Shown piece by piece: positions 18,784 through 32,135 of a DNA stretch of 32,348 nt. The stretch lies in the NCBI GenBank assembly GCA_903926565.1, contig CAIYJU010000117.1:1-32348 (forward strand), given 5' to 3'. The notes beneath the pieces are model-generated. The model saw nothing but the letters and a program-made list of their open reading frames with translations. It did no database searches and was not told the DNA's origin. Source of the stretch: an uncultured Bacteroidales bacterium. Its GTDB lineage: Bacteria; Bacteroidota; Bacteroidia; Bacteroidales; FEN-979. Positions within the stretch are counted from its first letter, which is position 1. The number at the start of each line of letters is the position of its first letter. Position numbers and translations under genes: made by a program.

Positions 18784-18856
<73 letters not shown>

Positions 18857-18865
18857 CAAAACCAA

Positions 18866-18911
18866 TTTTTAACTGTAGAGGCGTGCCATGGCGCGCCTCT
18901 ACAGTTAAAAA
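18866..18911. repeat. 46-bp near-perfect palindrome between two tRNA genes
   Basis: Arms of 23 bases (18866-18888 and 18889-18911) are complementary except for one G-T wobble, around a central CCATGG. The core GTAGAGGCG...CGCCTCTAC resembles an interspersed palindromic repeat. It begins 9 bases after tRNA-Gly and ends 3 bases before tRNA-Leu, so a transcript through both tRNAs would form a long hairpin that could guide processing or end transcription. Confidence 0.75.
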
Positions 18912-18914
18912 TTC

Positions 18915-18998
18915 GCCCTGGTGGTGGAACTGGTAGACACGCAGGACTTAAAATCCTGTGACTTCACGGTCGTGCGGGTTCAAGTCCCGCCCGGGGTA
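18915..18998 (+). tRNA. tRNA-Leu (UAA)
   Basis: An 84-nt class II tRNA with a long variable arm (TGACTTCACGGTCGTG region). The anticodon stem CAGGA/TCCTG has loop CTTAAAA, giving anticodon UAA. The T arm is GCGGGTTCAAGTCCCGC and the discriminator is A. The acceptor GCCCTGG pairs with CCGGGGT using two G-U wobbles. Its 3' side borders a recombinase remnant, so it is a likely integration target. Confidence 0.95.
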
Positions 18999-19007
18999 CG
19001 AATACAA

Positions 19008-19243: not shown

Positions 19244-19621
19244 TCATGCCATCAGAAAATTCCTTATCGAGGTAACAAAACCTGAAGCCTCTTCAAAAGT
19301 GTGTTTTGCATCGTCGGGCGAAGCCTTGAAACCAATCTCATAATCACTTTTCAACCGTTGGTCAAGAATTTTCGAAAAGGTTTTCCCAAATAAAACCGGG
19401 AATTTGCCGGTTTTAATAAAGGTTTTCTGAAATTGAACATTGACGCCTGTATGTGTATATGCCTCGATTTCTTCGGTTAACAAAGCAGCCTGTGCCGCGT
19501 GAAACATGGCATAATAACTTCGCGAAACCGAAGCTGTATAACGACTTTTTTCAAGCAAGGCATTAGCATCAGCAAGGCACTCAAATGCTTTATCCAGATA
19601 AACGGTTACATTTTCATTCAT
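19244..19621 (-). CDS. HEPN-domain protein (candidate toxin of MNT/HEPN pair)
   Basis: A 125-residue, mostly helical HEPN protein of the UPF0332-like type. The hallmark motif reads SRSYYAMFHAAQAAL (about residues 33-47), giving R-x6-H. This is the catalytic pair of HEPN ribonucleases. The residue two after the His is Ala, so the Tyr of the R-x(4-6)-H-x-Y motif, AMPylated in HepT-type systems, is absent here. Its ATG overlaps the end of the upstream nucleotidyltransferase by four bases, so the two are translationally coupled. The pair resembles MntA/HepT (type VII) toxin-antitoxin or defence modules. Whether this HEPN is an active RNase or a substrate-binding partner is not settled by sequence. 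Confidence 0.82.
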   Translation of the reverse strand: MNENVTVYLDKAFECLADANALLEKSRYTASVSRSYYAMFHAAQAALLTEEIEAYTHTGVNVQFQKTFIKTGKFPVLFGKTFSKILDQRLKSDYEIGFKASPDDAKHTFEEASGFVTSIRNFLMA

Positions 19622-19959
19622 ACTTCAATGCCATCTCTGAATACGTTTTTGAAAATCGGGAGTTTTGAGTGAGAAAAACTATCTTCCGAGACTGGATTTG
19701 TTGATATAAAAACATCATGTTCAAGCCCGATACTGAATTTAATATCAGTCAGTCGTTCAATTTCAGTAAATGGGGACTCCATGTCAGAAAGCACAATCAT
19801 TAAATCAATATCTGAATCCTGGTTAGCGATGCCCTTGGCATAGGAACCATAAAGAATTACCTTTTTTAATTTCCGGCCATAAATGCTCCTTGCCTTCTCT
19901 TTAAAACTGGAAAGAATCGGCATAATGTTTTCCGATGATTTAGGTAAAATCTTTTGCAT
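19618..19959 (-). CDS. MNT-type minimal nucleotidyltransferase (candidate antitoxin)
   Basis: A small pol-beta-superfamily nucleotidyltransferase. The motif ILYGSYAKGIANQDSDIDLM satisfies the GS-x10-DxD pattern exactly, so nucleotide and metal binding should be intact. From ATG 19959 it has 113 residues. The frame extends to a GTG at 20010 (130 residues), but a consensus -7 box (TATCTTTG, complement of 19973-19980) lies inside that extension, so the ATG is preferred. The stop overlaps the HEPN start by four bases. In MntA/HepT systems this enzyme AMPylates and silences the HEPN toxin. It is adjacent to an integrase stub and tRNA-Leu, as expected of horizontally moved cargo. Confidence 0.82.
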   Translation of the reverse strand: MQKILPKSSENIMPILSSFKEKARSIYGRKLKKVILYGSYAKGIANQDSDIDLMIVLSDMESPFTEIERLTDIKFSIGLEHDVFISTNPVSEDSFSHSKLPIFKNVFRDGIEV

Positions 19960-19972
19960 CCGGTTTTTTTTA

Positions 19973-19980
19973 CAAAGATA
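19973..19980 (-). promoter_or_regulatory. -7 box TATCTTTG of the MNT/HEPN operon
   Basis: The complement of 19973-19980 matches TAnnTTTG exactly and lies 13 bases upstream of the ATG at 19959. The transcript would begin close to the start codon with a very short leader. Confidence 0.5.
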
Positions 19981-20272
19981 ATCCAAATTCCTGACAGGTG
20001 GTAAATTCACGTATCACAAGAATTGGCAAGAATCATGTGTAAACTTTGAACAGTCATTACTGCACGCCAAATACAATTTTCCAATTCTGCTATAATTCAT
20101 CAAAAACCGGTATTGTGTCGTAATCAACCAACTGCTTTACCTCTTTGCATTGCAGGGCCGCACACTGGCATTTTTTTGACAGCCGGATATGTAATTGAGT
20201 TTAAGATTGGATCTGGACCTTTGAGATTTTTTGGATTTTTAAAGACAATCCTTTCCTCACATCAACAAAAAG
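19981..20272. other. Gene-free stretch beside the MNT/HEPN island
   Basis: About 290 bases between the MNT/HEPN operon and the Omp85-like gene. The only long plus-strand frame (from 20113) continues antisense into the neighbouring gene and has no protein-like features. I see no strong hairpin, tRNA or repeat. It may be the other flank of the decayed element. Confidence 0.4.
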
Positions 20273-21754
20273 CTATATTGGCATGCCAAACCCAAAAAAG
20301 AATCCATTCGTGTGGATCGATGTAAAGGCATATTCAAACCGGACCACCAGGTCGTAATAGGTCACAAAATCAATTCCCAATCCCCAGCTGAACAGCATTT
20401 TGTTGTTGTATGGGTTGTTTGTTGTGAAATTATTGACCACATAGCCTGCATCGGCAAAGGCATTCAGGTAAAAGGCATATTGAAGCGCCTTGAACTTGTT
20501 TTTTTCCTGCCCCTCTTTGACTTTCTTAACGCTTGGTTTGATCAGCTCGAATTTAATGTTGTTCCTGGTAAAATACATCTGGTCGCCCTTCAGTGTATAG
20601 AGGTCAAACCCGCGGATGAAATCTTTCCCGTCGGTCATGTTCAGCTGGTAATAGTAGGGGGCGTTTTCACCGGAGGCATTTTCTGCCTTGAACATCTCTG
20701 CCACATACCATTTCCGGCCAATGGTTTGATAAAAGTGGAAATCGACCCCGTAATAGAACAGGTCAACATCTTTTGAAACGAGGCCCATACCGACTTTATT
20801 GACGAAGGCCCGGAGCATGTTCCCTTTCAACGGGTATGAATGGCTGTTGCGGGAATCGTAATAGTAATCGGCATAAAGACTAAGGGATAAGTTCGATTTT
20901 TTATTTCCGGCCAGGTAGTTGGTGTCAAGTTTTAGCACGGAATCGGAGACTTTGATATATTCGCCGGTCAGTTTTATAGTCCCGTAATTATAAAGTCCCG
21001 GCCGCAGGGTGAGTTTTGCGCCGAGTTTGGCCACCTGGGAGCTGTTGGGAGCATAGAGCATCTGTCGTTTGTTTTCGACCGAGGCATATTCAACATAATA
21101 CATGTTGCTGTAGCCGGCCGTCATTGTCAGCCCGACCATTTTTCCCTTTCCGCCCCAGGGGATCTTGTACCCCACTGCGACGGCCCAGGTTTTCCCTGCC
21201 AGGGCAATCACCGAGGTCTGGTGATTTAGCCCGAAGAGGTTGTTATGACTAAAAAACAGCCCCATACTCAGGTAAGACCAGTCAATATCCCGGATCCATT
21301 CGTTGAAATTCGGGGCATTGAGTTTGGGGATAGGAAACAGCCACCAGTAGTGCCGCTCGACTACGTCGATCAGGAGGGTATATTCGTTGTCCTTTATCCA
21401 TTTTAACGAAAGGTCGACTGTGAGAAACAATTTGGCATTGATCAGGTTTTCGCGGCTGTAATTCATCCTCAGTCGAAGCTCACTCGAATCGCCCGGGTAA
21501 AAAATCCGCTCGTTAAAATTGACCCTCTTCCCCTTCTGAAAGGTTGCAAGGCTGTCACCAATTTTGAAATCCAGTTCACGCACAAGGATTTGTGGTTTAG
21601 TCAGTTTATTGCCGGTGATTTCAACCCCGGTAATCCTGATGTACGGGGAATCCAGTGTGTCCGGTACATGGATCGCGCCGTCTTTGTTCTGCGCCCGCAT
21701 CAGGAGAGGTAAACAAATCATCATAAAAGCCACTGCTGCCGTGAGGATTCTCAT
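20273..21754 (-). CDS. Omp85/BamA-like outer membrane protein with one POTRA domain
   Basis: A 493-residue protein with a signal peptide (cleavage near LMRAQ, about residue 22). One POTRA-like domain follows (about 38-130: IRITGVEITGNKLTKPQILV ... EYTLLIDVVERHYWW), then a barrel of about 350 residues rich in alternating aromatic strands and ending in the strand GFFFGFGMPI. BamA itself has five POTRA domains and about 800 residues, so this is a shorter relative, similar to the patatin- or TamA-type single barrels of Bacteroidota. Its role could be insertion or secretion of a partner, or lipid handling. The sulfotransferase ends 43 bases upstream on the same strand, so co-transcription is likely. 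Confidence 0.78.
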   Translation of the reverse strand: MRILTAAVAFMMICLPLLMRAQNKDGAIHVPDTLDSPYIRITGVEITGNKLTKPQILVRELDFKIGDSLATFQKGKRVNFNERIFYPGDSSELRLRMNYSRENLINAKLFLTVDLSLKWIKDNEYTLLIDVVERHYWWLFPIPKLNAPNFNEWIRDIDWSYLSMGLFFSHNNLFGLNHQTSVIALAGKTWAVAVGYKIPWGGKGKMVGLTMTAGYSNMYYVEYASVENKRQMLYAPNSSQVAKLGAKLTLRPGLYNYGTIKLTGEYIKVSDSVLKLDTNYLAGNKKSNLSLSLYADYYYDSRNSHSYPLKGNMLRAFVNKVGMGLVSKDVDLFYYGVDFHFYQTIGRKWYVAEMFKAENASGENAPYYYQLNMTDGKDFIRGFDLYTLKGDQMYFTRNNIKFELIKPSVKKVKEGQEKNKFKALQYAFYLNAFADAGYVVNNFTTNNPYNNKMLFSWGLGIDFVTYYDLVVRFEYAFTSIHTNGFFFGFGMPI

Positions 21755-21797
21755 GCTATCTTTTTTAAGTGCATAAATAGTTTATAATGGTACATTT

Positions 21798-22982
21798 TCA
21801 TAAGACCATCTGTGGTTTTTCACCTGAAACAAACTGAACGAATTTGTCAGGGTTCGGTGATGATGAAACTGCCTCACTATTCCCGCTATAGCCTAATTTC
21901 TGCATGATGTATGAAGCAAACTGATCGACGAGGCCTATCGTTTCCAGTGTTGGTGGCATGGGGTTATGCTCCGGAGCAGGATTCTGATCGAGGTATTGGT
22001 TGAATCTCCATGAAACTTTGCCAAAATCACCCAGTCCGAATTTTTCATAGATATGATTCAGATGCCTGGGAATATCTTTGGTAAAATCATCCATCTTCAA
22101 TTCGATCAGATCATTTTCAGGAATTTTGTCACGGTCGCAAAAATATGCATCAATCGACTTCCTGTAAAGGTTAAACACGTTTTCGCGGGAAAAGTCATGC
22201 GGAACATCCTGAAGTTGTACTCCGGGAAATACGGAGAGGATGAAATGGTAAAGTGATTCGATGACTTTATAGGGGTGCCGGTGAATGAAGATGAACTTTG
22301 CGTCGGGGAACATCTCCCTGATCAAGCCTATCCTTGTAAGGTGGCACGGGTTTTTCCCGATATACCGGGTGCCGCCGGTATTGAAAATTGCTTTCACGAT
22401 CATTCCGCGATAGGCTTCCCTCCATTGGGCGATTAAATGAGGTGAAAGGTTCCCGGTAAATAATTCCCGGTCGATGATCTGGTCAAACTCAGCAGGGAAC
22501 AGGAAAAATTTGTAGATGGTGGAAGGCTGAATATTCATCAGTCCGAAATCCTCCTCCTGCGGGAAATCCATATCCATGCTTACGTTGTCATAAGGTCTTT
22601 GGGCCGGGAGAAGGTGATTGATCAATGGTTTCATCCACCAGGACTGGGTAAGGACCAGGTTCGGGAAGACAGTCTGAAATGTCGTAGTATAGGCTGCTTC
22701 CGGATCCTGGCACAGGAGGTTGTGCAGCAGGGTGGTGCCGCTGCGCCAGAAACCGATGATGAACACAGGCGGGTTTTTTAACCGGTGATCTCGGATGCGT
22801 TTCTGCCATATCATTCGTTCTGCCAGGGTAAAGGGCTCCAGGATTCCTGCGGCAACCCGGGAGAGGATGAACTTCCATCGGTACTTTTCCTCGACATCAT
22901 AAATGCCTTGCACGGAAGAGAAATTTTTGAGCGAACTTCCGGCAAGGGTAGTTACGGGAAATCTGAAATTAGTGCTACGCAT
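21798..22982 (-). CDS. PAPS-dependent sulfotransferase family protein
   Basis: A 394-residue cytoplasmic enzyme of the Sulfotransfer_3-like group, expected to move sulfate from PAPS to an alcohol or amine acceptor. The 5'-phosphosulfate loop reads PVFIIGFWRSGTTLLHNLL (about residues 72-90). The 3'-phosphate motif reads KFIFIHRHPYKVIESLYHF (about 229-247), with the conserved Arg and Ser-containing helix. The central segment EEDFGLMNIQPST is typical of related bacterial proteins. No signal peptide is seen. The acceptor is unknown; candidates are a sterol-like compound, a lipid or a glycan. It lies between the SulP sulfate permease (88 bases upstream) and an Omp85-like gene (43 bases downstream). 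No PAPS synthesis genes are in the window. Confidence 0.85.
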   Translation of the reverse strand: MRSTNFRFPVTTLAGSSLKNFSSVQGIYDVEEKYRWKFILSRVAAGILEPFTLAERMIWQKRIRDHRLKNPPVFIIGFWRSGTTLLHNLLCQDPEAAYTTTFQTVFPNLVLTQSWWMKPLINHLLPAQRPYDNVSMDMDFPQEEDFGLMNIQPSTIYKFFLFPAEFDQIIDRELFTGNLSPHLIAQWREAYRGMIVKAIFNTGGTRYIGKNPCHLTRIGLIREMFPDAKFIFIHRHPYKVIESLYHFILSVFPGVQLQDVPHDFSRENVFNLYRKSIDAYFCDRDKIPENDLIELKMDDFTKDIPRHLNHIYEKFGLGDFGKVSWRFNQYLDQNPAPEHNPMPPTLETIGLVDQFASYIMQKLGYSGNSEAVSSSPNPDKFVQFVSGEKPQMVL

Positions 22983-23070
22983 TTTATATTATATACATTG
23001 AAGGGTGATCGTTGACTGTTAAATACTTATTTTGATCATGCTGCGATCGGCCATGGATTCAAAACTGTCT

Positions 23071-24861
23071 TCATTCCTGTACTGGGGAAAGAGGATTCGC
23101 ATTGAGTGTTTGGCGTGCCAGATCGGGGTTAATGCTAAAAACCGCAGAATATTGTGTAAGATGAACATTCCCGGTCAGTTCTTTGATAAAATCTGATCGT
23201 TTCAGGCGATCCATTACGGGCCCTTTTACTTCGGAAAGATGGAAGGTGATTCCTCCGTCCTTCAGACGGAGGTTGATCGCTTCTAAACTTTCGAGTGCCG
23301 AGATATCTATCGCATTCACAGCAGGACATTCCAGGATGACATGCTTTATGTCAGGGTTTGCTGCTACTGCCTCATTTACATATTCTTCGACAAACCGGGC
23401 GTTGGGAAAAAAGAGACTTTCATCGACCCGGAGTGAAAGTATTTCAGGATATATTACAACATTGTGGCGTTTCACATTCCGGAAATGCGGGGTGCCCGCA
23501 ATCTGACCCACCATGGCAATGTGCGGCCGTGATGTGCTGTAGAGGTGCAGAACGATGGAGAGGGCAACCCCGGCAATGAGCCCCGGTTCAATACCTTCTA
23601 TCAGGGTAATGAGAATCGTAACTGCCATTGCTGAAAAATCGGCTTTGGAGAATGCCCATGCATGTTTGAGTGCCTTGAAGTTCACCAGCGAAAGCACCGC
23701 GACGATGATGGTTGCGGCGAGGGTGGCATTTGGAAGAAAGAACAACAGGGGAGTAAGAAACATCGTGGTAAGCGCGATGCCAACTGCAGTAAATGCCCCG
23801 GCTGCCGGTGTTTCAGCGCCGGCATCGAAGTTTACCACTGAACGGGCAAATCCACCGGTAACCGGAAAACCACCTGAGATGGCAGAGCCAACATTGGCAG
23901 CGCCCAAAGCGATCAGTTCCTGGTCGGGATCGACACGTTGTCGTTTTTTTGCAGCCAGCGTGAGCGCAACTGAGATGGATTCCACATAACCCACAATGGA
24001 GATGAGCAGTGCAGGCACGAGGATCTTCATCCAGAGCGCCATATCCAGTGGTGGCATGGCAAGTTTTGGCAGGCCGCCGGGAACCTTGCCGACAATCCTG
24101 ACTCCTTTATCGGCCAGGCCCAGGCCTGCAACGATGAGAATTGTGGCAACGATGGCTACAACCGGGCCAACTTTGACCATAATGTCAGAAGCTTTAGCGC
24201 TCAATCCCAGTCGGATCAAAAGCGGTTTCAGCCCGCTTCGGACCCAGAACAGAAAGAGCAGCGAACCGATGCCGATGGCTGTTGTGGCGACATGGATTGT
24301 GGGAATGCTGTGCCACAGCGAGATGACAATGTCCAGGAAACTCTCGCCTTCCGCATGGATCCCGAGAACAGGAGCGAGTTGACCTGCGGCGATCTGAAGT
24401 CCTGAGGCTGTAATGAAACCTGCAATGACCGGGTGACTGAGAAAGTTTGCCAGAAATCCCAGTTTCAGAAAACCCATGGCGAGCAGCAACAATCCTGAGA
24501 CCATGGCGAGCGCAACGGCTGCCCCCAGGTACTCCGGGGTTCCCTGTGAGGCAAGTTGTCCCACAGCTGCCGCAGTCATGAGGCTGGCCACCGCCACCGG
24601 GCCGACTGCCAGTGCGCGGGATGAGCCGAAGATCGCGTAGAGCAGCAGCGGAGCCATCGAAGCATAAAGACCAACTTCAGGCGGCAGCCCTGCAAGGATG
24701 GCATATGCCAGCGACTGAGGGATCAGCATCATGGTCACGATCAGCGCCACGATCATGTCGTTCGCAAAGGTCTTACCGGTGTATTTTGATCCCCAGTCGA
24801 GGATCGGGAAATATGACCGCAGTATTCCGGAAGTTTTTCTGATGAAAGAAGTTTTGCCCAT
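23071..24861 (-). CDS. SulP-family sulfate/anion transporter with STAS domain
   Basis: A 596-residue inner-membrane permease of the SulP (SLC26-like) family. The hallmark N-terminal region FANDMIVALIVTMMLIPQSL is followed by AYAILAGLPPEVGLYASMAP and FGSSRALAVGPVAVASLMTA (about residues 33-95). In all there are about 10-12 hydrophobic segments up to about 440, including AAKKRQRVDPDQELIALGAANVGS before GFPVTGGFARSVVN. The C-terminal STAS domain (about 460-580; HVILECPAVNAIDISALESL) is the cytosolic regulatory part. Likely cargo is sulfate; bicarbonate or another anion is possible for SulP members. It starts 32 bases after the arylsulfatase, so co-expression is likely: sulfatase action releases sulfate. 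Confidence 0.92.
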   Translation of the reverse strand: MGKTSFIRKTSGILRSYFPILDWGSKYTGKTFANDMIVALIVTMMLIPQSLAYAILAGLPPEVGLYASMAPLLLYAIFGSSRALAVGPVAVASLMTAAAVGQLASQGTPEYLGAAVALAMVSGLLLLAMGFLKLGFLANFLSHPVIAGFITASGLQIAAGQLAPVLGIHAEGESFLDIVISLWHSIPTIHVATTAIGIGSLLFLFWVRSGLKPLLIRLGLSAKASDIMVKVGPVVAIVATILIVAGLGLADKGVRIVGKVPGGLPKLAMPPLDMALWMKILVPALLISIVGYVESISVALTLAAKKRQRVDPDQELIALGAANVGSAISGGFPVTGGFARSVVNFDAGAETPAAGAFTAVGIALTTMFLTPLLFFLPNATLAATIIVAVLSLVNFKALKHAWAFSKADFSAMAVTILITLIEGIEPGLIAGVALSIVLHLYSTSRPHIAMVGQIAGTPHFRNVKRHNVVIYPEILSLRVDESLFFPNARFVEEYVNEAVAANPDIKHVILECPAVNAIDISALESLEAINLRLKDGGITFHLSEVKGPVMDRLKRSDFIKELTGNVHLTQYSAVFSINPDLARQTLNANPLSPVQE

Positions 24862-24893
24862 TGACTGCCTTTTTCGTAAAATTCTGCAGACTG

Positions 24894-27251
24894 TTATTTT
24901 CGTTCAATAGTCACGTACCCAATTTTCCCGGTGAATTTTGAAGATTTCCCGTAATCGGCTACATGTGTACCGTCGTCGACGCCAACATCGGCCAGGTCAT
25001 CAACCGAGAATATGCCAGGCTGGGTTTTTTCAATCCTCTTTTCAGCAACTTTTTTATCATTCACTGAAATTGTACCGATACCTCCTTTACCCATTCCTCC
25101 GCCATCGTACCTGAAGTCGTAAACCAGTTTGTAATTTCCCGGCTTCAACGGCTGGTCGGCCATAATCTGGGTTGACTCCATGCCAAGATAGTTGTAGCAG
25201 AATGCAGGTTTGTTGTTTTTCAGATAGAAAGAGAGACCGCCAAACCGGCCGCCCTGGCATACGATTACGCCGTTTCCATTAGCATCTACGGTAACTTCAG
25301 CGGTTATCGTGTAGGATTTGCTTCTAAGGTCGATAAAAATATCAACTCCCATTCCCTTCATGCCCTCTCCATAAGTCACGGTGTTCCTGTTACCCATGAC
25401 TGTCGGCCTGCCCATAAGTTCGGCATTCGTTCTTTCAAGCAGCCGGTCATCAAGCGGCAGTGCATGGTATTTCTCAGCCTCTTTCATAAACACATCCTGC
25501 ATGGCTTTCAGTTTGTCAGGGTTTTTTGCCGACAGATCATTGGCCAGGCTGAAATCGTCGCCGGTATTGTATAATTCCCATTTATCTTCCTGGAGTGTGT
25601 TGTCGGGTTTCAGTTTCCAGGGCGGTCTGTGGAGGGTACGGGCAAACCAGCCATCCTGGTACACGCCACGGTTCCCGAACATTTCGAAGTATTGTACTTT
25701 ATGCTGCTCTGCTGCAGCGGCATTATTGAATGTATAGGCCAGGCTGGTGCCCTCTATCGGATCCTGTTCAATGCCGTTGACCATCTTAGGTGCAGGTATC
25801 TTCGTTATCTCATAAACGGTAGGAGCAATATCAATCACATGGCCAAACTGCGAACGCACCTCTCCTTTGGCTTTGATACCTGCAGGCCACTGAACGATCA
25901 TGCCGTTGCGTGTACCACCAAAATCGGAAGCTACCTGTTTGGTATAGGAGAAAGGAGCATCAAGCGCCACAGCCCATCCGGCTGAAAAGTGAGGATAGGT
26001 GCTTGGTCCGCCCCAGTTGTCATAATGCTTTAACATCTCCGGAACAGTTTCTGCTACTCCGCTAAAATATGTCATTTCACTGTACATGCCATTCATCTGT
26101 CCTTCCGCGCTGGCACCATTGTCGCCGGCAATGAAGATGACAACGGTATTGTCCATGACCCCTAAATCGTTTAACGTTGAGATGAGTCTTCCGACTTCAT
26201 AATCGGTTTGCTCGGCAAATCCTGCATACACCTCCATCTGACGGGTGAACAGTCTCTTTTCATCGGCCGAAAGGTTATCCCAGTCCTTGATCCCGGCAGG
26301 TTTCGGTGCCAGTCTGGTGCCTGGTGGCACAATGCCCATTTTTAGCTGGCGCTCCAAAGTCATTTCACGCAGTTTATCCCATCCCTGGTCAAATTTCCCT
26401 TTGTATTTTTCTGCCCATGCCTTTGGCACGTGATGCGGTGCATGGGTTGCTCCCGGCGCATAATACATAAAGAAAGGCTTATCTGGCGACAATGCCTGCT
26501 GGAAACGGACCCATGAAATAGCCTGGTTGGTCATATCGGTGGTAAAGTGATAATCAGGGTTATCCGGCGTTTCTACCAGCGTACTCCCGTCATAAATCAA
26601 CGGAGACCACTGATTGGTTTCACCGCCGATAAATCCATAGAATTTTTCAAAGCCGGAATGTGTTGGCCAGCGATCCATGGGCCCTGAGTTTGAAATTTCC
26701 CAGGGAGGAGTTTCATGATATTTACCGAAAGCAGCCGTATTGTAACCGTTCTGGCGAAGCACCTCAGCCATGGGAGTGATGGTTTGAGGCCTTACTGAAG
26801 TATACCCGGGGAAGGTAGTCGCAGCCTCACCAATGCAACCCATGTTGTTGCTGTGATGGTTATACCCGGTTAGTAAAGCCACCCGGGTAGGGGAGCAAAG
26901 TGAAGTGGTATGAAAACGGTTGTACCTTAAACCGTTATCAGCAAGTTTGTCCATGGTTGGCGTGGTAACAGGCCCGCCAAACGCTTCGGAAACCCCAAAC
27001 CCCATGTCGTCAATTAAAACAACAACCACGTTGGGTGCACCTTTTGGGGCAGTCACATGGAAGCGTTCAGGCGCTTTTGCGCTGCGAACGTCAAGTTCGG
27101 TGTAGGTTTGCCGTTTCGGTTCCTTAACAGGAAGCATAGTCCGGTTGAACTGATCACCTTCCTTCCTGGTTGCAGGGTCCTCCTTTTGAGCCTGGCTGTA
27201 GCCGGAACAAAGAAAAGTGATGAACAATAAAATAGTCGATATTTTTTTCAT
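24894..27251 (-). CDS. Exported type I arylsulfatase, AtsA-like, with C-terminal domain
   Basis: Hydrolyses a sulfate ester. The 785-residue protein has a signal peptide (about 1-21). The catalytic domain carries the metal motif VVVLIDDMGFG (about 75-85), the formylglycine motif CSPTRVALLTG with Cys at about 119 followed by YNHHSNNMG, GKYHETPPWE, the histidine segment APGATHAPHHVP and FIAGDNGASAEG. The Cys-x-Pro-x-Arg form needs a formylglycine-generating enzyme or anaerobic sulfatase-maturing enzyme, neither of which is in the window. The GYNHH context and a roughly 600-residue core resemble Pseudomonas AtsA and related aryl/alkyl sulfatases more than glycosaminoglycan sulfatases. The last roughly 150 residues form a beta-rich lectin-like domain (TITAEVTVDANGNGVIVCQG ... 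FTGKIGYVTIERK). Probably periplasmic. No SusC/SusD or glycosidase genes accompany it, which argues against a classic polysaccharide locus. Confidence 0.92.
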   Translation of the reverse strand: MKKISTILLFITFLCSGYSQAQKEDPATRKEGDQFNRTMLPVKEPKRQTYTELDVRSAKAPERFHVTAPKGAPNVVVVLIDDMGFGVSEAFGGPVTTPTMDKLADNGLRYNRFHTTSLCSPTRVALLTGYNHHSNNMGCIGEAATTFPGYTSVRPQTITPMAEVLRQNGYNTAAFGKYHETPPWEISNSGPMDRWPTHSGFEKFYGFIGGETNQWSPLIYDGSTLVETPDNPDYHFTTDMTNQAISWVRFQQALSPDKPFFMYYAPGATHAPHHVPKAWAEKYKGKFDQGWDKLREMTLERQLKMGIVPPGTRLAPKPAGIKDWDNLSADEKRLFTRQMEVYAGFAEQTDYEVGRLISTLNDLGVMDNTVVIFIAGDNGASAEGQMNGMYSEMTYFSGVAETVPEMLKHYDNWGGPSTYPHFSAGWAVALDAPFSYTKQVASDFGGTRNGMIVQWPAGIKAKGEVRSQFGHVIDIAPTVYEITKIPAPKMVNGIEQDPIEGTSLAYTFNNAAAAEQHKVQYFEMFGNRGVYQDGWFARTLHRPPWKLKPDNTLQEDKWELYNTGDDFSLANDLSAKNPDKLKAMQDVFMKEAEKYHALPLDDRLLERTNAELMGRPTVMGNRNTVTYGEGMKGMGVDIFIDLRSKSYTITAEVTVDANGNGVIVCQGGRFGGLSFYLKNNKPAFCYNYLGMESTQIMADQPLKPGNYKLVYDFRYDGGGMGKGGIGTISVNDKKVAEKRIEKTQPGIFSVDDLADVGVDDGTHVADYGKSSKFTGKIGYVTIERK

Positions 27252-27288
27252 AGATTTTGTATTTTTAAATTTTCACCCAATTTATAAA

Positions 27289-27296
27289 CAAAATTA
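27289..27296 (-). promoter_or_regulatory. -7 box TAATTTTG of the arylsulfatase
   Basis: The complement of 27289-27296 matches TAnnTTTG exactly, 37 bases upstream of the ATG at 27251. The site suggests that sulfatase, SulP and possibly downstream genes have their own promoter distinct from the SBF-transporter gene. No -33 match. Confidence 0.45.
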
Positions 27297-27387
27297 TTAC
27301 ATTCTCATACTTACTCCTTTTTTTTTTGCGCCCTATTACTTCACCAAACATATCATATTGAATGGCTGTCAGGCGGGTTGATCCATA

Positions 27388-28245
27388 TTACGTGGTCGCC
27401 TTTCTTCCCATGAGAGGGGCAACAATTATACCGAGGATAAAAGACCACAAAGTCCAGATAATTACCATCGCCACCATATTTGGTTTTACTTCCGCGATGG
27501 TAAGAACCCCTATCAGTACGGCTGCTATATTACGTGTACCCATTCCGAGTGACATGACAATTTTCTCACCGCGGTTAAGGCCAAACCCGGAATAAAAGGA
27601 GATCAGTGCCATCACAACCATGAAAATTGTCAGTGAAAGCGTTGCCATGCTACCGGCAGTGTCCCACATAGGCTTGTAATAAATCAGCAGGCAGAAGATG
27701 ACTGTCAATAATGTGGACAGGCCTGCCAGTTTCTTTACCGGTTTGAAGATCTTATCGGCCGCACTACTCGCATATGTCTTTATTAAAGCACCAATGAGCA
27801 ATGGTAAAAGTATTGTCATAAAGAGCGGTTTCAGCAGCGATATTACACTCATTTCTATCCCTTTAACCAGCATGGGTGCGATAACCGGCATTAAAAGTGA
27901 TGTGCCGATCGCTGCTACCGGGATGAAGGCTCCGGCAAAGTCAACGTCTCCATGCGCTTTTGGAAGAAGCGGCGGGAGAAATGGTGCGCATGGAGCCAGG
28001 CTGCCTATGAACAATACGATGATATATTCATTATCCAGTGGAAGTAACAGCGTAATCAGAAAAGCTACAGCAGGCCCTATCACCCAGCCCAACCCGAACG
28101 TCAGACCAAGGAACTTCGGATTTTTAACTATCCTGAACATCTTGCCCAGGTTAACCTGAAGCCCCATGCTAAAAAGGTTTGAGATGGTGAAAACCATAAC
28201 AAGCGGACTAAATATTGTCTGACAAAATTGAATGATTGTGTCCAT
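27388..28245 (-). CDS. SBF/BASS-family (bile acid:sodium symporter-like) transporter
   Basis: A 285-residue inner-membrane protein with about nine hydrophobic segments and no soluble domain. Family features are the N-terminal SNLFSMGLQVN after the first helix, the proline-rich crossing motif LAPCAPFLPPLL (about residues 81-92) and the C-terminal GMGTRNIAAVLIGVL (about 236-250), the equivalent of the second sodium-site crossover helix. Bacterial members carry bile acids, keto acids or other organic anions with Na+. Substrate is unknown here. The arylsulfatase lies 136 bases downstream on the same strand and the CoA-disulfide reductase upstream, so an organic anion related to a sulfate ester is an attractive inference. 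It is shorter than ACR3 arsenite carriers, which also belong to this fold. Confidence 0.85.
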   Translation of the reverse strand: MDTIIQFCQTIFSPLVMVFTISNLFSMGLQVNLGKMFRIVKNPKFLGLTFGLGWVIGPAVAFLITLLLPLDNEYIIVLFIGSLAPCAPFLPPLLPKAHGDVDFAGAFIPVAAIGTSLLMPVIAPMLVKGIEMSVISLLKPLFMTILLPLLIGALIKTYASSAADKIFKPVKKLAGLSTLLTVIFCLLIYYKPMWDTAGSMATLSLTIFMVVMALISFYSGFGLNRGEKIVMSLGMGTRNIAAVLIGVLTIAEVKPNMVAMVIIWTLWSFILGIIVAPLMGRKATT

Positions 28246-28363
28246 AGTCTTTTCCGTTTGAGATTTAGATGTGTTGAAAGAAAGTGTTGATAAAATTTCC
28301 CGGCGCCATATATCTGCTGTATGTTTTCTCCGTCAGGAGGCAGTAATTGACCTCACCCCCCGG

Positions 28364-28387
28364 CCCCCTCTCCTGAAGGAGAGGGGG
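28364..28387. repeat. Palindromic G/C-rich interspersed repeat
   Basis: A perfect inverted repeat of 11-base arms, CCCCCTCTCCT (28364-28374) and AGGAGAGGGGG (28377-28387), with a 2-base centre, inside the 161-base gap between the rhodanese-domain gene and the transporter gene. Its C/G homopurine arms contrast with the AT-rich surroundings. Similar CCCCTCTCC palindromes are dispersed in many Bacteroidota genomes to my knowledge. It might attenuate readthrough between the two genes. Confidence 0.65.
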
Positions 28388-28406
28388 AGAAGGTGGCGCG
28401 TTTACT

Positions 28407-30092
28407 TTAATTTCCGGCACGATGTGAGCGTGACAGCATGCTGCCGGAGATGTTCCGGACTTTGAACCCGTTTTGCAACAGGATTCGCGTAGCGTAGTAG
28501 GAGCGTTGGGCTGAACGGCAAAATACCGCGATTTCACGATCGCGCGGAAGTTCGTCCAAACGTGCACGCAGTTGAGGCAACGGAATGTTGAATGCGCCCG
28601 GAACTGCCTCTGCGGCGATTTCCGGGGGATTGCGCACATCGAGGAGAAAGTCGTTGCCCAAAGTGTCCCAGTGGCATACCGGCATGTCGCCCCGGAGAAT
28701 GTTGGCGGCAATCATCCCTGCGAAGTTGACGGGATCCTTACCAGTGCCGTATGGCGGTGCATAACACAGTTCAGACTCTTCCAGATCGTAAATGGTGCAA
28801 CCCATCTGGATGGCCATGGCGAAGGAATCGATCCGCTTGGGAACGCCATCCTCTCCTAAAATTTGTGCGCCAAGTACGAGTCCGCTGGATTTCCGGAATA
28901 TGACCTTCATGGGTAAGAGTTTTGCCCCCGGATAATACCCGGCATGTGAATTCGGATAGAGGTAGATCTTCTCATAATCTGTATCCCCAAGCCCGATAAG
29001 CTGCTTTTCGCTGACCCCGGTCTGGGCAATTGCCGCGTCAAAAAGCTTGCAGATCGAAGTGCCCTGGGTGCCACGAAAACGGGAGTTGCGTCCGGCGATC
29101 ACATCAGCTACAATACGGCCCTGGCGGTTTGCAGGCCCGGCCAGCGGGATGAGCGCCCATTCGCCTGTAACGAAGTTTTTAACTTCGACTGCATCGCCAA
29201 CTGCGAAGATATCCTGGTCGGAGGTGCGCATCTGCTCATCCACGCGCATACCGCCGAGTTTGCCAATCTCAATCCCGGCCATTTTTGCCAGTGCAGTCTC
29301 AGGCCTCACGCCAATGGCTAATACAACAATGTCTGCCGGATGTGCTTTTCCTGATTCGGTAAGAACTTCAAGCGAACCTGTCGCCGATTTTCTGAATCCG
29401 GCCACACCGTCACTGAGTTCAACATTGACGCCATGTTTTTTCAGGTAACCCTCAACGAGACGAGCCATTTCCGGATCGAGAGGCGGCATGACCTGGTTCA
29501 GTTTCTCGACCAGCGTTACCTTGAGACCGCGTTCAATAAAATTTTCCACCATTTCGAGGCCGATGAATCCACCTCCGACTACCACTGCCTGCTTGGGTTT
29601 AGAAATCGTATCATTGCCAGTGAACGAATTACCAACTGACCGGTCAACATCCCGGTCAAGCCACGCTTTAATATTCCTGGCATCAGGAACGGTTCTAACA
29701 GAGAATATCCCGGGAAGATCGATGCCCGGCAGCGGTGGACGGATTGGCGCAGATCCCGGTGACAGCAATAGCTTGTCGTACTTTTCAGTGGTTACTTCAC
29801 CGGTAAGGTGATTCTTAAGCTCCACTGTTTTTAGTTTGGCATCGATGCCGACTACCTCGCAGCTGGTGCGGCAATCGACCGTGAATAATGCACGGAACAT
29901 TTGTTCAGTCGCCACAAGCAGACTAGACTCCTGTTCGATTGTTCCGCCAACATGATAAGGCAGTCCGCAGTTCGCATACGAAACATAGGGTCCGCGTTCC
30001 ACCATCAGGATTTCCACTTTTTCATCCAATCTGCGGAGGCGTGCTGCGCATGAGGCACCACCGGCCACTCCGCCTACAATAATTATTTTCAT
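28407..30092 (-). CDS. CoA-disulfide reductase-like flavoprotein with rhodanese domain
   Basis: A 561-residue fusion. The N-terminal FAD/NAD(P)H disulfide-reductase part has the FAD motif IIIVGGVAGGASCAARLRR (residues 3-21), the single redox cysteine in SYANCGLPY (Cys42, as in CoA-disulfide reductases), the NAD(P)H motif AVVVGGGFIGLEMVENF (about 168-184) and the second FAD motif TSDQDIFAVGDAVEV (about 288-302). The C-terminal rhodanese domain has the active-site loop VFCRSAQRSYYA with Cys at about 525. Such fusions reduce CoA disulfide, polysulfide or CoA-persulfide (Npsr/CoADR-RHD). It is the 5'-most gene of the sulfur-linked block. The extreme C terminus (ISGSMLSRSHRAGN) departs from the usual SGGY ending; a small frameshift or natural drift are both possible. 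Confidence 0.92.
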   Translation of the reverse strand: MKIIIVGGVAGGASCAARLRRLDEKVEILMVERGPYVSYANCGLPYHVGGTIEQESSLLVATEQMFRALFTVDCRTSCEVVGIDAKLKTVELKNHLTGEVTTEKYDKLLLSPGSAPIRPPLPGIDLPGIFSVRTVPDARNIKAWLDRDVDRSVGNSFTGNDTISKPKQAVVVGGGFIGLEMVENFIERGLKVTLVEKLNQVMPPLDPEMARLVEGYLKKHGVNVELSDGVAGFRKSATGSLEVLTESGKAHPADIVVLAIGVRPETALAKMAGIEIGKLGGMRVDEQMRTSDQDIFAVGDAVEVKNFVTGEWALIPLAGPANRQGRIVADVIAGRNSRFRGTQGTSICKLFDAAIAQTGVSEKQLIGLGDTDYEKIYLYPNSHAGYYPGAKLLPMKVIFRKSSGLVLGAQILGEDGVPKRIDSFAMAIQMGCTIYDLEESELCYAPPYGTGKDPVNFAGMIAANILRGDMPVCHWDTLGNDFLLDVRNPPEIAAEAVPGAFNIPLPQLRARLDELPRDREIAVFCRSAQRSYYATRILLQNGFKVRNISGSMLSRSHRAGN

Positions 30093-30154
30093 GGTTTTAA
30101 AGTTTTTAATTATTGATGTATTAGTCGTAAAATTTTATCATTTTAACCTTTGTG

Positions 30155-30961
30155 TTATTTCTCCTTCCCCTGTTGCTGCTCTTTCAGTTTTTGTTCCTGC
30201 TTCATTTTCTTCTCCTTTGCCCTCGCAGCGTTTTTTGCTTTTGCTTTTTCGCCGGCTCCGATAGGAATGCTTGCAAATAGATAGAATGAAGAGTTTCGCT
30301 GTGGGTCGCCGGGGTTGTTTTTCACAATATCCATAAAGCCATAGTAATAACGAAGGCCAAAATTCATCCCATTCAGGGCATCAATGGCATACCCGATACC
30401 GGCCATGCCTCCGACATCCAACTTTACAAACTGATCTTTTACATCATTATCAAAGGAAAGGTCTTCCTTGTTTTCAATTTCAGTCGTAAAGATATCATTG
30501 GCTTTATACCCCAGGCTAAGCATCGGACCAAACTCAATAAACAACTTTTTCTTTATCGAGTATCTTATCAGGATGGGTACATTGAAATAACTTAATTTCC
30601 GGTCAACGGTACCATTGCTGAAGAGGCTGTCAAGCGCCGTGGAATCAGCATTGGTAAGATGGTATGGAGTAATCCTGTTTGCTCCCAATGCGGATTTAAC
30701 CAATACCCCCGTGTGGAGATACCATGGTTTACCTTTTTTCAACAGGAAATCAAAATAGAAGCCCAGGTTGAACCCGGTACGGTACTTTGCCCCGCTAAGA
30801 TTGCTGATTGTAGAAAAGTTTGCTCCGCCATCGAGCCCGAATTTTAATGTCGGAGAATTGAGTTTATCCCCAAAGATCAATGATATCAGGACCTGGCCTT
30901 GCATCACCTGTGAAACCAGCATGATGGCCATAACCGGTATGAGTATTTTCTGTATTTTCAT
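30155..30961 (-). CDS. Outer membrane beta-barrel protein with lysine-rich tail
   Basis: A 268-residue protein with a signal peptide (about 1-22, VMQGQ) and a PorT-like/OMP_b-brl small-barrel pattern: LKFGLDGGANFSTISNLSGA, GFNLGFYFDFLLKKGKPWYL, FIEFGPMLSLGYKAND, GGMAGIGYAIDALNGMNFGLRYYYG. After the last strand (IPIG, about 235) it ends in about 30 residues almost wholly Lys, Glu, Gln and Ala (AKAKNAARAKEKKMKQEQKL...), a charged helix unusual after a barrel. The tail could lie in the periplasm. It precedes the rhodanese-domain gene by 62 bases. Function unknown. Confidence 0.72.
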   Translation of the reverse strand: MKIQKILIPVMAIMLVSQVMQGQVLISLIFGDKLNSPTLKFGLDGGANFSTISNLSGAKYRTGFNLGFYFDFLLKKGKPWYLHTGVLVKSALGANRITPYHLTNADSTALDSLFSNGTVDRKLSYFNVPILIRYSIKKKLFIEFGPMLSLGYKANDIFTTEIENKEDLSFDNDVKDQFVKLDVGGMAGIGYAIDALNGMNFGLRYYYGFMDIVKNNPGDPQRNSSFYLFASIPIGAGEKAKAKNAARAKEKKMKQEQKLKEQQQGKEK

Positions 30962-31016
30962 GATTGATTGCCTTTAGAACGAATGAATAATATTATTTAC
31001 ACTGAATCAAAACAGG

Positions 31017-32135
31017 CTACAACCCGAAACGGTATTGTAACCCCCCGATGAATTGGTTCCGTGAGCCCAGGAAACCATACTCCGCCCGCAGCATAAAATG
31101 CCTGTTGATCTGGAACTGGGTGCCGATGACGAAATTCCATTTGTTTTTCAGGGATTTCTCCAGTGAGTACTGAACCGTGGCACTGTTGCCATCATTCAAT
31201 GCTGCATCTGCGGCAGTCAATACATCACTTGCTTTAGCCAGGGCTTTATTGGCTGCCTCATACTTCGATACATTGACCGGGTTCTTTTGCTCAACCGGGG
31301 TAAGTCCATCCCACCAAGCAGTTACCTGCTGCGACGTTTCTCCGACTTTTACAAATCCCTGGTCAACTGTTGCCTGTAATTCACTGACAGGTAAAACTTC
31401 TGAAAGGTTTATCGAACCCACCGTATTAGATGTAAAATTAACCCTGAAAGCACCCACCCAGGCGGCGATGTTCATGTTCGGGTTTTTAAACTGGAAGGTC
31501 TTGCCAACCCTGGGGTCAAAGACAAAGGTGAAAACAGGCTTTTCAAGCGCGCTCACATCGGTCCAGACAAAATTCATGTCGAGGGCGATCCATATACCGC
31601 CTGCGCCAAAGGTCGGCGTGATGCCAAAACCAAGGGCCGTGGCGTCAAACCTGGCGGTTGTTGAAATGGAACCAACCTGCGACCAGGTGCTGTCAAAATC
31701 GGGAAGCCACACCCCGGCATTAATGGCTGTTGATGTTTTGGCTTTTGCAAAAACCCCGTACACATTTAAAAAGGGGAAGACCCAGATATCCGGCCTGATG
31801 TTGATGGAACTGGCAGTTGCTTTCGCATCATCGAACCGGATGATCTCATCCAGGTTGTGCATTTCCCCGTTGTTGAAGCCTACCATGAGATTGTCGATGA
31901 TCAGGCTGGATTCCTGCCAGAAATAATTTACGCTGATCCCCGCAGAATATGGGAGCTGATAGCCCTTCGCCGCAGCTTTTTTACCCCAGATCGGCAAAGC
32001 GTAAGGGTATCCTTTTTTTTCAATACTATCCTTAAGTGATTCATTTTTTGAACCAACAATTTTATTCGTATAGACCTGGCTGAAGGCCTGAATAGTAAGA
32101 AAGCACAATGCAGCGAACAGTAAAGATTTTTTCAT
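31017..32135 (-). CDS. Putative outer membrane protein, function unknown
   Basis: A 372-residue protein with a clear signal peptide (about 1-20, IQAFSQ). The body shows beta-strand-like alternation (AGISVNYFWQESSLIIDNLM, FPFLNVYGVFAKAKTSTAIN, AGGIWIALDMNFVWTDV, FVIGTQFQINRHFMLRAEYG) and ends with GGLQYRFGL, a typical terminal barrel strand. Residues about 240-315 break the pattern with a helix-rich insert (WWDGLTPVEQKN...ANKALAKASDVLTAADAAL), probably a plug or loop. It resembles conserved uncharacterised outer-membrane proteins of Bacteroidota and I cannot name it. The neighbouring genes upstream and downstream are also barrel proteins, 55-56 bases away. Confidence 0.65.
   Translation of the reverse strand: MKKSLLFAALCFLTIQAFSQVYTNKIVGSKNESLKDSIEKKGYPYALPIWGKKAAAKGYQLPYSAGISVNYFWQESSLIIDNLMVGFNNGEMHNLDEIIRFDDAKATASSINIRPDIWVFPFLNVYGVFAKAKTSTAINAGVWLPDFDSTWSQVGSISTTARFDATALGFGITPTFGAGGIWIALDMNFVWTDVSALEKPVFTFVFDPRVGKTFQFKNPNMNIAAWVGAFRVNFTSNTVGSINLSEVLPVSELQATVDQGFVKVGETSQQVTAWWDGLTPVEQKNPVNVSKYEAANKALAKASDVLTAADAALNDGNSATVQYSLEKSLKNKWNFVIGTQFQINRHFMLRAEYGFLGSRNQFIGGLQYRFGL

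What the first reader, a model, noticed from the sequence alone, without database searches (positions are those of the whole stretch)
21798..30092. Five-gene sulfur/organosulfate locus: CoADR-rhodanese, SBF transporter, arylsulfatase, SulP, sulfotransferase
Five consecutive same-strand genes combine sulfate-ester removal (exported arylsulfatase), sulfate permeation (SulP), sulfate-ester formation (PAPS-type sulfotransferase), an organic-anion carrier of the bile-acid family, and a sulfane-sulfur/CoA-disulfide enzyme. There are no SusC/SusD or glycoside hydrolase genes, so this is not an ordinary sulfated-polysaccharide locus. Inference: a cycle for a sulfated small molecule or lipid (sterol-like, aryl or alkyl sulfate), in which sulfate is removed outside, the organic part is imported by the SBF carrier, sulfate passes through SulP, and the sulfotransferase re-sulfates a product. 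A sulfatase and a sulfotransferase side by side is the most unexpected part. Gene families are seen in the sequence; the joint function is inferred.
Basis: partly seen in the sequence, partly recalled or inferred. Interest (0 to 1): 0.72.

Follow-up and report, generated by a model that had tools for sequence, protein, structure and literature searches.

The report
Composite sulfatase, sulfotransferase, sulfur-gene locus
Five neighbouring sulfur-related genes in an anoxic-water bacterium are really there, but relatives indicate two separate gene sets side by side: a sulfur-handling set also seen in rhizobia, and a sulfotransferase tied to outer-membrane barrel genes, with a sulfatase added.

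Summary
In detail: all five genes are at the stated coordinates, intact, on the minus strand, with the named families. The same-strand run continues on both sides with outer-membrane barrel genes.

The five together were found in none of 60 other genomes. The set resolves into two modules. (B) CoADR-rhodanese and SulP, with SBF in some: they occur in the same 4 of 43 family genomes, close together, and relatives (66%, 75%, 35%) lie within 14 kb on a Rhizobium plasmid, so lateral transfer is likely. (A) A sulfotransferase beside Omp85-type barrel genes, in some genomes with the arylsulfatase. In 6 of 7 genomes that have this sulfatase, the sulfotransferase lies within 14 kb.

The sulfotransferase is 31% identical to one in a Bacteroides PAPS cluster laid out like the BT_0416 cholesterol-sulfation cluster. 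The SBF protein lacks the Glu and Gln of the sodium sites, so a bile-acid role is unsupported. No sulfatase maturase was recognised in this genome. A sulfation/desulfation cycle is not shown. Verdict: new variant of known kinds; the sulfotransferase-Omp85 linkage is the newest element.

The parts
20273..21754 (-). Omp85/BamA-like outer-membrane barrel protein, 493 aa
   Evidence: TIGR03303 (BamA) E 4e-8, far below its cut-off; 14 of 43 family genomes, 16 copies; no Pfam hit
21798..22982 (-). PAPS-type sulfotransferase (Sulfotransfer_3), 394 aa
   Evidence: PF13469 3e-31; fold model pLDDT 88.6 nearest Stf1 and STF9 of mycobacteria
23071..24861 (-). SulP anion permease with STAS domain, 596 aa
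   Evidence: PF00916, PF01740; TIGR00815 over its cut-off; 75% to a Rhizobium plasmid SulP
24894..27251 (-). Exported arylsulfatase-like formylglycine sulfatase with extra C-terminal part, 785 aa
   Evidence: PF00884 9e-61; P. aeruginosa arylsulfatase structures about 1e-59; signal peptide judged by eye
27388..28245 (-). SBF-family carrier, 285 aa, not a canonical sodium/bile-acid symporter
   Evidence: PF01758 7e-17; sodium-site Glu and Gln replaced in 8 of 8 aligned homologues
28407..30092 (-). CoADR-rhodanese (persulfide/CoA-disulfide reductase type), 561 aa
   Evidence: Best structure match B. anthracis CoADR-rhodanese 5e-160, then S. loihica 4e-156
30155..30961 (-). Outer-membrane beta-barrel protein, 268 aa
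   Evidence: PF13568 3e-17
31017..32135 (-). Predicted outer-membrane protein of the same run, 372 aa
   Evidence: No family; homologues of about 77% next to the sulfatase in L023 and L025, a fragment in L024; a homologue has only a sub-threshold OMP_b-brl hit

Best explanation
The locus is a composite of two gene sets. Module B (CoADR-rhodanese, SBF-like carrier, SulP) handles reduced and inorganic sulfur: CoADR-rhodanese reduces persulfide or similar sulfane sulfur, and SulP moves an inorganic anion, most likely sulfate or sulfite. It shares a recent source with Alphaproteobacteria. Module A is a sulfotransferase with Omp85-type barrels: inside the cell it puts PAPS sulfate on an acceptor, perhaps a lipid, whose product acts at or crosses the outer membrane. 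In part of the family an exported arylsulfatase sits in the same neighbourhood and would cleave sulfate esters outside the cytoplasm. Here the sulfatase lies inside module B, between SBF and SulP. Shown: gene content, linkage, kinship. Inferred: substrates, transport directions, the outer-membrane step, and any link between the modules other than that SulP could supply sulfate for PAPS.
For: CoADR and SulP in the same 4 of 43 family genomes (E limits 1e-120 and 1e-100), neighbours in G020 and G030, with SBF between in G013, with SBF and the sulfatase between in the window. G013 has CoADR-SBF-SulP-sulfotransferase-Omp85 on one contig and sulfatase-barrel-PAS gene-sulfotransferase-Omp85 on another; the window sulfotransferase is sister to the first of these (100/97). 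On a Rhizobium leguminosarum plasmid SulP 75%, CoADR 66% and SBF 35% lie within 14 kb, and G013 shares two more genes with that stretch, 77% and 72%. In 4 of 4 opened alphaproteobacterial plasmids with SulP of 60-63%, it lies near MBL-fold, FAD-oxidoreductase or sulfurtransferase genes. Omp85 relative within 1 kb of the sulfotransferase in 11 of 13 family loci by BLAST, a twelfth by Pfam; 0 in 259 kb of other loci. CysD in 11 of 11 genomes asked; APS kinase in 41 of 43, this genome included.
Against: G003 and G018 have the sulfotransferase but no APS kinase match (completeness 81% and 96%). No anSME, and no FGE with the cysteine motif, was recognised in this genome, so the sulfatase may not be active. 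In the 11 most distant sulfotransferase loci (L098-L108) no Omp85 relative was seen by BLAST. Gaps of 32-161 bp on one strand also fit one transcript. SulP sits next to the sulfotransferase in both the window and G013, so the modules may cooperate.
Confidence: 0.5

Rival explanations
1. One reading: the sulfatase removes sulfate from a sulfated small molecule outside, SBF imports the organic part, SulP moves sulfate, and the sulfotransferase re-sulfates a product.
For: Tight same-strand spacing; sulfatase-sulfotransferase linkage in 6 of 7 genomes; SulP next to the sulfotransferase here and in G013; two Nostoc plasmids have FGE, arylsulfatase and an SBF-family gene in a row.
Against: Full set in none of 60 other genomes; CoADR-SulP without the sulfatase in 3 of 3 other genomes; Nostoc SBF only 24% to the window's; SBF lacks the sodium-site residues; sulfatase and SBF stand together in no other family locus read.
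Confidence: 0.12
2. A sulfate-scavenging set: the sulfatase frees sulfate from organic esters, SulP imports it, CysD/APS kinase make PAPS, and the sulfotransferase and sulfur assimilation use it; SBF and CoADR are bystanders or handle other sulfur compounds.
For: Sulfatase-SulP gap only 32 bp; CysD and APS kinase in this genome; Nostoc sulfatase lies near ssu or YeeE genes.
Against: Relatives' sulfatase has no SulP beside it; relatives come from anoxic, partly sulfidic places by record title, where sulfur is unlikely to limit growth (inference).
Confidence: 0.2
3. Chance crowding of mobile genes at a tRNA-side site, without a joint function beyond each pair.
For: tRNA-Gly, tRNA-Leu and a HEPN/nucleotidyltransferase pair lie beside the run; parts are patchy across the family.
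Against: The sub-linkages recur in other genera of the family; no mobility gene was identified in the run.
Confidence: 0.15

Closest known systems
Bacteroides BT_0411-BT_0416 cholesterol sulfation cluster (PMC9417993, abstract and passages)
   Same: PAPS-type sulfotransferase with an anion permease beside it; 31% identity to the B. finegoldii enzyme of the same layout
   Different: No PAPS genes in the locus; SulP instead of SLC13; Omp85 and sulfatase genes added; separate clade. BT_0416 itself was not compared; the link rests on the gene layout.
Sulfur clusters of alphaproteobacterial plasmids with sulP, MBL-fold and FAD-oxidoreductase or rhodanese genes
   Same: SulP 60-75%; CoADR 66% and SBF 35% in the Rhizobium one
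   Different: No MBL-fold gene or regulator beside SulP in the window; sulfatase and sulfotransferase interleaved
P. aeruginosa arylsulfatase AtsA (1hdh; family S1_4 by PMC5066984 passages)
   Same: Catalytic motif and E 8e-60 over residues 72-584
   Different: 785 aa with an extra C-terminal part, against 536; no recognised maturase
NADH-dependent persulfide reductase / CoADR-rhodanese (3icr, 3nta; PMC7969121, abstract)
   Same: Full-length match, 5e-160 and 4e-156; both cysteines
   Different: No difference seen in sequence; activity untested

Membership tests
Formylglycine (S1) sulfatase | C-x-P-[ST]-R active-site motif and Sulfatase domain | tested here: met
   C119-S-P-T-R; PF00884
Formylglycine (S1) sulfatase | A maturase (anSME or FGE) in the genome | tested here: inconclusive
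   No TIGR03942 match at E <= 0.001; 3 FGE-domain proteins without the cysteine motif; genome 93.8% complete
BT_0416-type sulfation cluster | Homologous PAPS sulfotransferase | tested here: met
   31% over 360 residues to the B. finegoldii enzyme
BT_0416-type sulfation cluster | PAPS synthesis genes beside it | tested here: not met
   None in the window run; APS kinase on C30, CysD on C52
BT_0416-type sulfation cluster | Sulfates cholesterol or steroids | not testable with these tools
   Needs an enzyme assay
Sodium/bile-acid symporter (ASBT type) | Glu and Gln of the sodium sites (positions recalled) | tested here: not met
   Gly and Arg in 8 of 8 homologues where the solved transporter has Glu and Gln
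CoADR-rhodanese / Npsr | Reductase with active-site Cys plus C-terminal rhodanese with Cys | tested here: met
SulP permease | Sulfate_transp plus STAS domains | tested here: met
Sulfated-polysaccharide utilisation locus | SusC/SusD pair with glycoside hydrolases | tested here: not met
   None among the 8 proteins 20273-32135; contig ends at 32348

The most novel reading that the evidence does not exclude
A sulfotransferase and small Omp85-type barrels form a dedicated system in anoxic-water Bacteroidales: a lipid or sterol-like compound is sulfated inside and placed in, or passed through, the outer membrane by the barrels, while the linked exported sulfatase can remove the sulfate again.
Probability: 0.12. 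Interest if true: 0.7.

Novelty: new variant of a known kind. Interest (0 to 1): 0.38.

Why it matters
It replaces a proposed five-gene pathway by two testable units. The recurring sulfotransferase-Omp85 pair could lead to an undescribed sulfated envelope compound, and the sulfur module is a likely case of gene transfer between rhizobia and Bacteroidales.

Tried and rejected
Five-gene order as a conserved operon: rejected. Bile-acid carrier: rejected on residues. Polysaccharide locus: rejected. Promoter and terminator scans were uninformative; Rfam found only the three tRNAs. The phylum scan with CoADR at E <= 1e-190 found 1 of 246 other genomes, and no SulP among the frames read beside it; the limit was strict, so more distant kin are not excluded. 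The first structure model, from 12 sequences, was poor (pLDDT 58.4); 31 sequences gave 88.6. A Fisher test used a wrong genome total and was replaced: 6 of 7 sulfatase genomes have the sulfotransferase against 4 of 54 others, p 2.5e-5, or p 6e-4 within the 37 family genomes; the genomes are related, so these values are too small. Junction letters around the sulfatase showed no telling similarity to either G013 locus. Named homologues of SulP, CoADR and SBF were sought among plasmid records only. Literature: no paper of the held library has sulfotransferase, sulfatase and Omp85 together; two have sulfotransferase and Omp85, both on other subjects by title; one search gave none; some searches were seen as listings, apart from the papers named elsewhere.

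Full report
The genes. The window is a whole contig (C117, 32348 bases) of a 4.69-Mb draft genome, 93.8% complete. Relatives found with the sulfotransferase are, by record title, Bacteroidales or Bacteroidetes assemblies (one Chlorobiota; one named Draconibacterium), several from lakes such as Pavin. The five genes are intact at the stated coordinates with the stated families. An Omp85-like gene follows the sulfotransferase after 43 bp, and two outer-membrane protein genes precede CoADR. Nothing in the window shows co-transcription.

Conservation. The sulfatase was searched in 61 genomes, the own one included: 7 have a close orthologue (73% or more), and 3 more (G010, G018, G032) only paralogues of about 42%. 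The sulfotransferase has 13 close copies (48% or more) in 10 of the same 61 genomes. Both are present in 6 genomes, on one contig each time, 0.9 to 13.5 kb apart; G035, the seventh, has sulfatase, PAS-type gene and Omp85 but no close sulfotransferase. SBF at E <= 1e-30 was in 3 of 61, closely related (84%) only in G013. CoADR and SulP were each in the same 4 of 43 family genomes. No other genome has all five. G013 has two loci: C85 with CoADR-SBF-SulP-sulfotransferase-Omp85, and C67 with sulfatase, barrel, PAS-type gene, sulfotransferase, Omp85, DUF1254 gene and a second Omp85. The window sulfotransferase is sister to the C85 copy (100/97); its Omp85 and sulfatase are not resolved among the sister copies. 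So the window resembles the C85 arrangement with the sulfatase between SBF and SulP; how it came there is not visible in the junctions.

Sulfotransferase and Omp85. Of the 13 close copies in the family, 11 have a relative of either Omp85 type within 1 kb by BLAST. A twelfth (L075) has a neighbour 25 bp away that Pfam calls Omp85. The thirteenth (L077) is cut by the contig end on one side and has none in 9.1 kb on the other. The comparison is uneven, since Pfam was run on chosen neighbours only. In 259 kb of 14 other fetched loci the BLAST test found none; these were not drawn at random. Of three further close loci from named assemblies one (L097) has it, two (L092, L095) do not; of 11 more distant ones (L098-L108) none does by BLAST. 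In G065 another sulfotransferase clade (37%) lies beside the same Omp85. The Omp85-like gene occurs in 14 of 43 genomes, 16 copies; 9 of 16 have a sulfotransferase within 3.3 kb, 7 have none in the stretch read. The dependence is therefore one-sided.

What the sulfotransferase is. The fold model (pLDDT 88.6, pTM 0.88) is nearest to mycobacterial Stf1 and STF9, then to tyrosylprotein sulfotransferases, with query TM-scores of 0.4-0.6. B. finegoldii and P. distasonis homologues lie in cysQ-SLC13-cysC-cysD-cysN-sulfotransferase rows. PMC9417993 (passages) describes Bt_0411 to Bt_0415 as PAPS and sulfate-import genes beside BT_0416, which makes cholesterol sulfate; that the rows correspond gene by gene is my reading. 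The window protein is 31% identical to the B. finegoldii one and falls in another clade of 26 rows (99/99), so the acceptor cannot be carried over. CysD was present in 11 of 11 genomes asked. APS kinase was present in 41 of 43; the two without it, G003 and G018, both have the sulfotransferase, which speaks against a simple PAPS supply there unless the drafts are incomplete.

The sulfur module. On a Rhizobium leguminosarum plasmid CoADR, SulP, two rhodanese genes and an SBF gene lie within 14 kb; identities are 66%, 75% and 35%, and G013 C85 shares two further genes with that stretch, 77% and 72%. In G020 and G030 the gene upstream of CoADR region shares 68-71% with another gene of that stretch. 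SulP of 75% across phyla with patchy presence in the family favours lateral transfer; the direction was not tested and only plasmid records were searched. Npsr enzymes reduce persulfides (PMC7969121, abstract). The SBF proteins have Gly and Arg where the solved transporter has Glu and Gln in 8 of 8 rows; that these are sodium-site residues is recalled. Two Nostoc plasmids have FGE, arylsulfatase (50%) and an SBF-family gene in a row, but that SBF shares 24% with the window's. Of 472 plasmid records with a sulfatase match the neighbourhoods of 8 were opened; 7 carried annotation, and none of these showed a sulfotransferase.

Against an active sulfatase. No anSME match was found in this genome; 14 of 43 family genomes have one over the cut-off, and 5 of the 7 genomes with this sulfatase do not. 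The three FGE-domain proteins of this genome found with the Nostoc enzyme lack its cysteine motif. A gap in the assembly or an unknown maturase may explain it.

Verdict. The one-pathway reading is not supported. A narrower claim, that a sulfotransferase is linked with Omp85-type barrels and often with a sulfatase, is supported, and the searches found no paper on it. Substrates and mechanism remain inferred.

Noticed in passing
window 19244-20010: HEPN and nucleotidyltransferase gene pair overlapping by 4 bases, just downstream of the run and near tRNA-Gly and tRNA-Leu (18784-18999); looks like a toxin-antitoxin pair.
   Followed up: no
window 28246-28406: A C- and G-rich palindromic repeat of about 60 bases follows CoADR and is also found after CoADR in G013 (L070); it may be a hairpin between CoADR and SBF.
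   Followed up: partly
own genome; L132, L133, L134: Five sulfatase matches in the genome but no anSME match and no FGE with the cysteine motif.
   Followed up: partly
L081 8218-11987 (own genome C67): A second sulfotransferase-like gene (27%) lies between an acyl carrier protein gene and flexirubin-type FlxY and DarH genes.
   Followed up: partly
L070 2-5424 (G013 C85): Upstream of CoADR in G013: glucosidase, dehydrogenase, lactonase, aquaporin-type and Phenol_MetA_deg genes, two of them 72-77% to the Rhizobium plasmid.
   Followed up: partly
L027, L034 (alignment A3): Some homologous sulfatases have Ser instead of Cys at the formylglycine position.
   Followed up: no
L028-L029 and other relatives; L125, L127: A DUF1254 gene lies near a sulfatase of this kind in G013 (L023), and in Planctomyces and Flammeovirga plasmids.
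   Followed up: no
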